NCBI GenBank assembly: GCA_901472505.1
Contig: LR590468.1
Span: forward strand, 3,199,501 to 3,263,500
Length of the DNA: 64,000 nucleotides
Reading direction: 5' to 3'
Source of the DNA: Proteus vulgaris
GTDB taxonomy: Bacteria; Pseudomonadota; Gammaproteobacteria; Enterobacterales; Enterobacteriaceae
Both the position numbers and the translations under genes were made by a program. Below the pieces are notes generated by a model. It was not told the origin of the DNA and did no database searches. It worked only from the letters and a program-made list of their open reading frames with translations. Shown piece by piece: positions 7,150-8,029 of the stretch (positions are counted from its first letter, which is position 1; each line of letters opens with the position of its first letter).

Positions 7150-7230
7150 TCTGCAAAGTCAAAATTTGCTGGCTGGCATGGATAGTGGCTTTGTAGGCTA
7201 AATAGCGTTAATCAATACTTTCACATCATC
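7150..7230. other. Prophage right end / probable attR inside flagellin gene
   Basis: Boundary between prophage and chromosome. Right of about 7217 the reading frame is recognisably flagellin (TSSDIKSIQEEV and onward). Left of it an in-frame stop occurs at 7199-7201 and flagellin similarity is gone. In lambdoid prophages the J/tail-fibre end is the end distal to int, next to attR, which fits this side. The att core cannot be defined because the other prophage end is outside the window. Alternative: a deletion or recombination that removed the 5' end of flagellin without being the att site. Confidence 0.55.
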
Positions 7231-8029
7231 CGACATTAAATCTATTCAGGAAGAAGTGAATCAACGTACCGCAGAAATTAATCGTATCTCAGAACAAACA
7301 CAATTTAATGGCGTAAAAGTGTTAAGCGAAGACAGTACATTAAATTTACAAGTGGGTGCGCATGATAAAGAACAAATCAGTGTTGCTCTGAAAAAAATGG
7401 ATGCGACTACATTAGGTATTGATAAATTGGATTTATCAGTAAAAAGCAAAATTGGTTCTAAAGCAACCAACGTGGAAGTGACTCCAACAGGGGGTACAAC
7501 ACTACCTAAAGAAATGCAACAGCTTAATACTCAAGCGCTAGATGACAAAGTTACACAAGGTACAATTAAAAGCTATAATATTTATTATGTAAAAGGTGCC
7601 GATGGTAAAGACGATAAATCAAAACTTATCGTACAAACTGTAGATACAAAAGGCGTTGAAGGTTACTTCAATGCAACGGTAACCTCAGGTGCCGCAGGCG
7701 ATAAAGCAACAGTGGATGTTACTACAACAGCGGTAGCAGGTTTAGATATAGTTAATGAACAACCATTATCAACACTAGATAAAGCATTATCTCAAGTTGA
7801 TAGCTTACGCAGTGCCATGGGTGCTGTGCAAAACCGTTTAGATTCTACCATTGCTAATTTAGGCAACACTGTTAATAATCTGACCGCATCACGTAGCCGT
7901 ATAGAAGATGCCGATTATGCGACAGAAGTGTCTAATATGAGTAAAGGTCAAATACTGCAACAAGCAGGCACTTCTGTATTAGCGCAAGCAAACCAAATGC
8001 CTCAAAACGTATTATCACTGCTTCGTTAA
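7202..8029 (+). pseudogene. Flagellin, 5'-truncated by prophage (3' fragment)
   Basis: 3' part of a flagellin (FliC/FlaA/FlaB family), the filament subunit. The start of D1 (about the first 100 residues, including the conserved MAQVINTN-type beginning) is missing. The frame becomes flagellin-like at about 7217, with a stop at 7199. A GTG at 7256 could serve as a start but would give a protein without N-terminal D0/D1, which cannot polymerise. The remaining protein has EINRISEQTQFNGVKVLS, a variable middle, and a complete C-terminal D1/D0 ending SVLAQANQMPQNVLSLLR. fliA and fliZ follow on the same strand, the normal chromosomal setting in Proteus. The 5' part probably lies on the far side of the prophage. 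Confidence 0.85.

What the first reader, a model, noticed from the sequence alone, without database searches (positions are those of the whole stretch)
7150..8029. Prophage integrated within a flagellin gene next to fliA
The prophage right end abuts a flagellin lacking about its first 100 residues, while fliA and fliZ downstream are intact. If the left half of flagellin lies on the other side of the prophage with a matching att core, excision would restore the gene, making the phage a possible switch for flagellin expression. Proteus strains usually carry two flagellin genes here, so the cell may still swim with the other copy.
Basis: partly seen in the sequence, partly recalled or inferred. 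Interest (0 to 1): 0.7.

Follow-up and report, generated by a model that had tools for sequence, protein, structure and literature searches.

The report
Prophages that lodge inside flagellin genes
A complete-looking temperate phage sits exactly inside the second, probably weakly expressed, flagellin gene of this Proteus genome; related phages use the same spot in other Proteus species, and one branch appears to carry its own flagellin tail segment, so that integrating could change the filament protein the cell makes.

Summary
On the same contig, 52.5 kb to the left, lie the missing 5' part of the split flagellin, an integrase and excisionase, and a 20-bp direct repeat identical to window 7229-7248. 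Both sides are in the same reading phase. The cut gene is the second flagellin (flaB position). The first flagellin, with a perfect sigma-28 site, is intact; flaB's site is degenerate. A motility switch in this strain is therefore unlikely.

The site recurs. In 6 of 20 Proteus genomes (own included) a phage with a related integrase splits a flagellin at this codon; nine viral contigs show the same right junction. Type A (this window) truncates flaB. Type B (P. alimentorum, P. hauseri, one unnamed species) sits in the perfectly promoted flaA, whose left piece still reads to full length: the phage evidently carries a flagellin 3' segment plus terminator. In two species whose flanking chromosome is 84-95% identical, that segment is 98% identical, like the phage ends (98-99%). 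Type B would convert the filament by integrating (inferred; no virion or expression data).

The parts
1..7228 (+). right-hand part of a 52.5-kb lambdoid prophage (genome 3154208-3206748); tail genes and a theta-like gene lie here
   Evidence: ORFs; PHROGs J-like central tail fiber, tail fiber, pol III theta; left end fetched from the same contig
1701..5324 (+). J-like central tail fiber gene
   Evidence: phrog_31, E=0
5336..6757 (+). tail fiber gene
   Evidence: phrog_1591, E=7.6e-122
6797..7162 (-). DNA polymerase III theta-like gene next to attR, also present beside attR in G002 and G014
   Evidence: phrog_1105, E=1.3e-32; tblastn 77-78%
7163..7228 (.). P' arm side of the attachment site (TTTGTAGGCTAAATAGCGTTAATCA...CACATCA); outer bound chosen by me
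   Evidence: same arm in G002, G006, G018 and, slightly diverged, G001 and G014; 9 IMG/VR contigs
7229..7248 (.). attR core, TCCGACATTAAATCTATTCA; identical copy at genome 3154208-3154227 (attL). Exchange narrowed to TATTAAATC by a relative at a secondary site
7229..8029 (+). 3' part of the second flagellin gene (flaB position), without its start or promoter, 266 codons open plus stop
   Evidence: NF005294 positions 107-376 of 376; Flagellin_N 100-138
8460..9194 (+). fliA (sigma-28), intact
   Evidence: NF005413 345 bits, cut-off 201
9253..9783 (+). fliZ, intact
   Evidence: TIGR03823 297 bits, cut-off 159

Best explanation
A complete-looking lambdoid phage integrated by its own tyrosine integrase at a 20-bp site in codons 107-113 of the second Proteus flagellin gene. 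Integration cut the gene: the 5' half is followed by five foreign codons and a stop; the 3' half lies promoterless at the other end. Because the perfectly promoted first flagellin is untouched and the second has a degenerate sigma-28 site, the place is probably a low-cost docking site (inferred), and the insertion also takes the second gene out of any recombination with the first (inferred). The integration module is shared by phages whose other genes are largely unlike. One branch (type B) carries a flagellin 3' segment and terminator beside its core and sits in flaA; there integration most likely replaces the C-terminal 70 percent or so of the filament protein by the phage's version while the host's own segment is displaced some 40 kb away (structure shown, expression inferred).
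For: Whole-genome search finds the 5' half and the right fragment only at the two prophage ends. 20-bp repeat at both ends. Integrase 46 bp from attL, excisionase overlapping its start, CI-like repressor, terminase, portal, head, tape measure, tail fibers, holin, Rz. Same phase on both sides. Recurrence: 6 of 20 genus genomes split at the same codon; 9 of 9 IMG/VR contigs with the P' arm run into the flaB 3' frame (the search pattern ended in two core bases). A type-A phage in G018 at a secondary site shows that the core belongs to the phage and limits the exchange to 9 bp. sigma-28 sites. Type B: left flagellin continues through stop and terminator into phage DNA, identical in G001 and G014 over 63 + 337 bp; the right fragment lies upstream of a complete second flagellin and fliA; core-to-stop segments of G014 left and G001 right are 98.0% identical, phage ends 98-99%, flanking chromosome 84-95%; a tree groups the three phage-type segments, support 96/99.
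Against: No excision, expression or filament was observed. Low flaB expression rests on a promoter comparison and on recalled Proteus mirabilis work. In P. alimentorum (G001) the exchange between phage and host segments maps to the conserved C-terminal part, not the core, so the converted arrangement is clear in only two of three type-B genomes. No free-phage attP for type B was found. The type-A phage in G018 sits elsewhere although that genome's flaB core is intact and empty, so the flagellin is not its only site.
Confidence: 0.8

Rival explanations
1. Active-lysogeny switch: the phage excises without lysis, re-forms the second flagellin gene and so turns its expression on.
For: int and xis present, frame in phase, 3' fragment still open; type-A right fragments open in 9 of 9 viral contigs.
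Against: flaA intact and perfectly promoted; the same degenerate sigma-28 site before 17 of 19 further flagellin genes scored, phage or not; no excision data.
Confidence: 0.12
2. Deletion or rearrangement remnant: flagellin 5' end lost next to phage DNA, no site-specific event.
For: Only the right end is visible in the window.
Against: 5' half, matching core and integrase found on the same contig 52.5 kb away, same structure in G002 and, across contigs, G006.
Confidence: 0.01
3. For type B: the phage carries the flagellin segment but integrates by exchange at its terminator end, so the left flagellin is host and the phage's copy stays silent on the right.
For: G001 shows the exchange in the C-terminal part: 86 informative columns (140-656) pair G001 right with G014 left (2 columns contrary and 2 undecided in that block), then 4 columns (759-830) pair G001 left with G014 left. 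The segment separates the core from the integrase-side arm by about 1 kb.
Against: The P' arm joins the flagellin at the same codon as in type A; in G014 and G007 the phage-type segment is on the left, promoted side.
Confidence: 0.2
4. For type B: a tandem host flagellin duplication, one copy split, the extra 5' half later deleted; nothing flagellar in the phage.
For: Proteus genomes with three or four flagellins in the cluster exist (G012, G010).
Against: Same terminator-to-phage junction in three species, with phage ends more alike than the flanking chromosomes in G001 and G014.
Confidence: 0.1

Closest known systems
Vibrio cholerae phage K139 family (PMC4870250, passages seen)
   Same: A temperate phage whose integration sequence lies in a flagellin gene cluster: between flaC and flaD in one strain, between flaA and flaC in another
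   Different: Described there as between genes; the passages do not mention a split flagellin or a carried flagellin segment. Not compared by sequence here
Prophages with reversible gene interruption (S. aureus Sa3int in hlb, abstract starts seen; sigK element, PMC5553647 passages; Listeria comK, recalled)
   Same: Site-specific insertion inside a coding gene, with phase kept so that excision could re-form it
   Different: The gene hit here is a second flagellin with a degenerate promoter site; no regulated excision shown
Phage 21 / e14 in E. coli icd (recalled; only a search listing seen)
   Same: Type B brings a replacement 3' end for the gene it enters
   Different: Here the segment is about 840 bp with a highly variable middle, so the product changes; type A brings none
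FR-phi flagellin remodelling phages with TldR (PMC13418256, passages seen)
   Same: Lysogeny would change flagellin identity
   Different: They carry a whole flagellin gene and an RNA-guided repressor of the host gene; here a partial gene would be fused to the host promoter by integration
E. coli flagellar phase variation by an islet or by excision (Feng 2008, Liu 2012; seen only as references in PMC7018530; papers not held)
   Same: Recombination-linked change of flagellin
   Different: Details recalled only; no split flagellin gene as attachment site that I recall
Proteus mirabilis flaA-flaB recombination (recalled)
   Same: Same locus, silent second flagellin
   Different: Homologous recombination of two host genes, no phage

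Membership tests
Temperate phage with tyrosine integrase | Integrase of the family with the conserved R..HxxR..Y residues | tested here: met
   phrog_1 integrase E=2.6e-57; R193, H278, R281, Y313 invariant in six aligned integrases, two of them alike (catalytic role recalled)
Temperate phage with tyrosine integrase | Direct-repeat core at both ends, integrase beside one | tested here: met
   20 bp
Temperate phage with tyrosine integrase | Excisionase, repressor, packaging, head, tail and lysis genes | tested here: met
   the endolysin match is weak (E=2.8e-10, 110 aa)
Temperate phage with tyrosine integrase | Excision and virions | not testable with these tools
   sequence only
Active lysogeny switch | Excision re-forms an open gene | tested here: inconclusive
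   both sides in the same phase; flanks were not joined
Active lysogeny switch | Interrupted gene matters for the phenotype | tested here: inconclusive
   flaA intact; flaB site 10/12 against 12/12
icd-type integration with supplied 3' end (window phage) | Phage supplies a full 3' end | tested here: not met
   five codons then stop
icd-type integration with supplied 3' end (type B relatives) | Phage supplies a full 3' end | tested here: met
   G001, G007, G014, from integrated copies; no virion sequence
FR-phi/TldR flagellin phages | Whole flagellin gene in the prophage | tested here: not met
   no Flagellin_N match inside the window genome's prophage
FR-phi/TldR flagellin phages | TldR and guide RNA | not tested
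   not scanned for

The most novel reading that the evidence does not exclude
A Proteus phage lineage uses a conserved flagellin codon stretch as attachment site and carries a highly variable flagellin 3' segment in attP, so that integrase action itself fuses the phage's surface domain to the host's promoter and N-terminus: flagellin conversion by integration, and a vehicle that moves H-antigen domains between species. Type A, as in this window, would be the branch without the segment, sheltering in the weakly promoted copy.
Probability: 0.55. Interest if true: 0.8.

Novelty: new variant of a known kind. Interest (0 to 1): 0.6.

Why it matters
Flagellin is the H antigen, an immune target and a phage receptor; how new surface domains enter a species is an open question. 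A phage that swaps the domain by integrating would give a direct, testable route. PMC13418256 (passages seen) calls its TldR-linked genes the first known prophage-encoded flagellin; a partial, integration-fused flagellin would be another mechanism.

Tried and rejected
Deletion remnant: rejected on the left end. Flagellin targeting as a general trait of this integrase family: not seen; in the 130 loci (80 viral kept of 116 found, 50 genome loci) a flagellin match near the integrase occurred in 5 loci, all type A or B (L091, L092, L094, L167, L174), though many viral contigs end at the integrase. Hafnia phage Meifeng (58%) has no flagellin-like match in the 13 kb around its integrase. Other viral contigs with a flagellin match: of 80 kept (84 found), 11 were flagged as a C-terminal part without an N-terminal part before it; 9 are type-A junctions, and in the other 2 (L245, L273) the fetched stretch begins inside an open flagellin frame. 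A scan for the type-B terminator-phage junction in IMG/VR found none. The FlaA_C query was translated in a wrong frame, so its rows were disregarded. Claim dropped on checking: that the core motif is in every Proteus; one search found SDI-x-S-I/V-Q in a flagellin of 17 of 20 genomes, none in G013, G016 and G017. Papers: ten searches were made; five bear on prophages in flagellin genes and listed no report of this in Proteus; the K139 paper came. The library holds only open-licence papers.

Full report
What is there. The window is bases 3199501-3263500 of a single-contig 3.92-Mb Proteus genome (genus from its relatives). Window 7229-8029 is the 3' part of a flagellin gene: 266 codons matching positions 107-376 of the 376-position model NF005294. 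To its left is phage DNA, to its right intact fliA and fliZ. A whole-genome Flagellin_N search gives four places: an intact flagellin (3152340), a 5' half ending early (3153902), a more distant member (3132812, 315-aa open frame, not pursued) and the window's fragment. The 5' half lies directly downstream of the intact flagellin, in the order fliD, flagellin 1, flagellin 2 5' half. It ends at TCCGACATTAAATCTATTCA, which recurs at window 7229-7248; on that strand no other exact match of 15 or more bases links that 10-kb stretch with window 6501-8100. A 348-aa integrase gene ends 46 bp from the left copy, with an excisionase gene overlapping its start. Distance between the copies: 52,521 bp.

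The phage. PHROGs matches cover integrase, excisionase, CI-like repressors, replication O, Rha-like antirepressor, holin, a weak endolysin, Rz, small and large terminase, portal, head morphogenesis, major head, tape measure, J-like fiber, tail fiber and theta-like protein (20 proteins chosen from 61 ORFs of at least 90 aa, one of which is the flagellin fragment; two of the 20 match only families of unknown function). A 7.9-kb stretch with the head genes matches Morganella phage IME1369_01 over its length at 74% and Providencia phage PSTCR7lys over half at 83%. It looks complete; activity is not shown.

Which gene, and what follows. In the 20 genus genomes (own included) the first flagellin has a perfect TAAA-N15-GCCGATAA site 104-105 bp before its start (20 of 20). 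Of 19 further flagellin genes scored, 17 have the same degenerate site (GACGATAG, 10 of 12) and two of G010's extra copies score 9 and 10 elsewhere; the further genes of G003, G005 and G012 were not picked up by the start pattern and are unscored. The consensus is recalled. So the interrupted copy is probably poorly expressed, which agrees with recalled work on P. mirabilis that flaB is silent; my search and one paper looked at for this gave nothing on it. The core is in the same codon phase on both sides (SDIKSIQ), and undisturbed relatives such as G018 and G011 read through it.

Recurrence. Searching the genus with the integrase (20 genomes; all have some integrase match), eight have a relative of 64% identity or more: G000, G002, G006 and G018 (96-100%), G001 and G014 (76%), G007 (75%, broken into two frames), G010 (64%). 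Six of these lie in a flagellin: G000, G002, G006 in the second gene (type A) and G001, G007, G014 in the first (type B). In G006, G001 and G007 the two ends are on different contigs; in G000, G002 and G014 both are on one. G018 carries a type-A integrase about 48 kb from its P' arm at a non-flagellin place, its flagellins being intact; G010's integrase is also elsewhere. In IMG/VR the P' arm pattern, which includes the first two core bases, occurs in nine contigs, and all nine run on into the flaB-type 3' frame. Nine contigs (L087-L095) carry a type-A integrase, 98-99% identical to the window genome's; three extend far enough to show the flagellin 5' half (L091, L092, L094). One of these nine, L088, is the same sequence as the G006 contig, so the viral contigs are not all independent of the genomes.

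The exchange point. G018 reads CCGT-TATTAAATC-TATTCA on the integrase side and CCGA-TATTAAATC-CTAATT on the other. The shared nine bases bound the exchange, and both phage half-sites are seen away from any flagellin, so the phage itself carries the flaB-like core. G006's left and right copies differ at the third base and just after the core, which fits the same place. The integration module travels between unlike phages: of 16 window-phage proteins compared, 5 match G014 (integrase 77%, theta-like 78%, Rz 44%, tape measure and J fiber 27-28% in part) and 3 match G002 (integrase 96%, repressor 62%, theta-like 77%) (E up to 1e-5, fetched stretches only). G014's prophage has its own large terminase, portal, head protease, major head, tape-measure and replication genes (eight proteins given).

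Type B. In G001, G007 and G014 the piece left of the integrase is not truncated: it is a 380-386-aa flagellin with the perfect promoter site, whose stop codon is followed by a terminator and then phage DNA. At the other end is a P' arm (like type A's in G001 and G014, more diverged in G007), then the core, a second flagellin 3' part, a host-like spacer (in G014 and G007; longer and partly different in G001), a complete second flagellin and fliA. Thus flaA is the split gene and one 3' segment is extra. Between G001 and G014 the phage left end is 98.1% identical over 7.5 kb and the right end 99.3% over 1.8 kb (each including 0.2-0.3 kb of flagellin), while the chromosome beside the left end is 89-93% and beside the right end 84-95%. 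The last 130 bases of the left flagellin, 63 bp of terminator and the next 337 bp are identical. From core to stop, G014 left and G001 right are 98.0% identical, and G007 left is 94% to both, while G007 right is 88-90% and G014 right 75% to these three; the undisturbed G009 gene is 89-90%. A tree of alignment columns 21-657 (601 kept, nine rows) groups the three (96/99) and the first two (100/99); two of six inner branches are starred and two rows have long branches. So the same segment type goes with all three phages. In G014 and G007 it is on the promoter side; in G001 it is on the silent side, and the informative columns switch from G001 right (86 columns, 2 contrary, 2 undecided) to G001 left (4 columns) between columns 656 and 759, in the conserved C-terminal part. 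The simplest reading is integrase exchange at the core in G014 and G007, and homologous exchange near the C-terminus in G001. An alternative, that G001's phage carries the other segment, is not excluded (its left segment goes from 3 differences in 318 bases before the core to 25 in 200 after it, against G009); it too needs a phage-borne segment. The weak points: three genomes, no virion sequence, P. hauseri's integrase broken, and the integrase-side arm about 1 kb from the core.

How it most likely works. Shown: position, core, integrase, recurrence, intact phases, extra segment in type B. Inferred: the integrase uses the core; type A is nearly neutral because its target is the weakly promoted copy; type B keeps the cell flagellated because it supplies a working 3' end, and thereby changes the filament surface. 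The core codes for SDIKSIQ, a motif found (as SDI-x-S-I/V-Q) in a flagellin of 17 of the 20 genomes and not in G013, G016 and G017.

Compared with what is known. Gene-interrupting prophages are familiar (Sa3int in hlb, abstract starts seen; sigK element in PMC5553647, passages seen). Supplying a new 3' end recalls phage 21 and e14 in icd (recalled). The V. cholerae K139 family integrates in a flagellin gene cluster, between flagellin genes according to PMC4870250 (passages seen), so a flagellin locus as phage site has a precedent; I did not compare its sequence. PMC13418256 (passages seen) describes phages with a whole flagellin and an RNA-guided repressor, and calls that the first known prophage-encoded flagellin. 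I found no report of split flagellin genes as attachment sites in Proteus, in an open-licence library. Hence new variant of a known kind; I lowered interest from 0.62 to 0.60 after reading the K139 passage.

Verdict.

Noticed in passing
L007:11054-11851 (genome 3191554-3192351): A second CI-like repressor gene in the prophage, reverse strand, among the tail-side genes; possibly a moron or superinfection gene.
   Followed up: no
window 6797-7162: DNA polymerase III theta-like gene next to attR, kept beside attR in two phages with otherwise largely unlike genes.
   Followed up: partly
L060:9308-9400 (G018): Type-A phage at a secondary site just upstream of the start of a 279-aa ORF, although that genome's flaB core is intact and empty.
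   Followed up: partly
L065:7902-8929 (G007, P. hauseri): Integrase split into two frames, so this prophage is probably fixed in flaA.
   Followed up: no
L085 (G004): Second flagellin broken by a stop, with no close integrase of this family in that genome (best E 4.2e-7); G012 has three and G010 four flagellins in the cluster.
   Followed up: no
L005:3729-3747: The type-A left end adds five codons (DCVLR, DCVLH or DCVLL) and a stop to the flagellin 5' half; the ending slightly resembles the flagellin C-terminus and could be a relic of a lost segment or chance.
   Followed up: no
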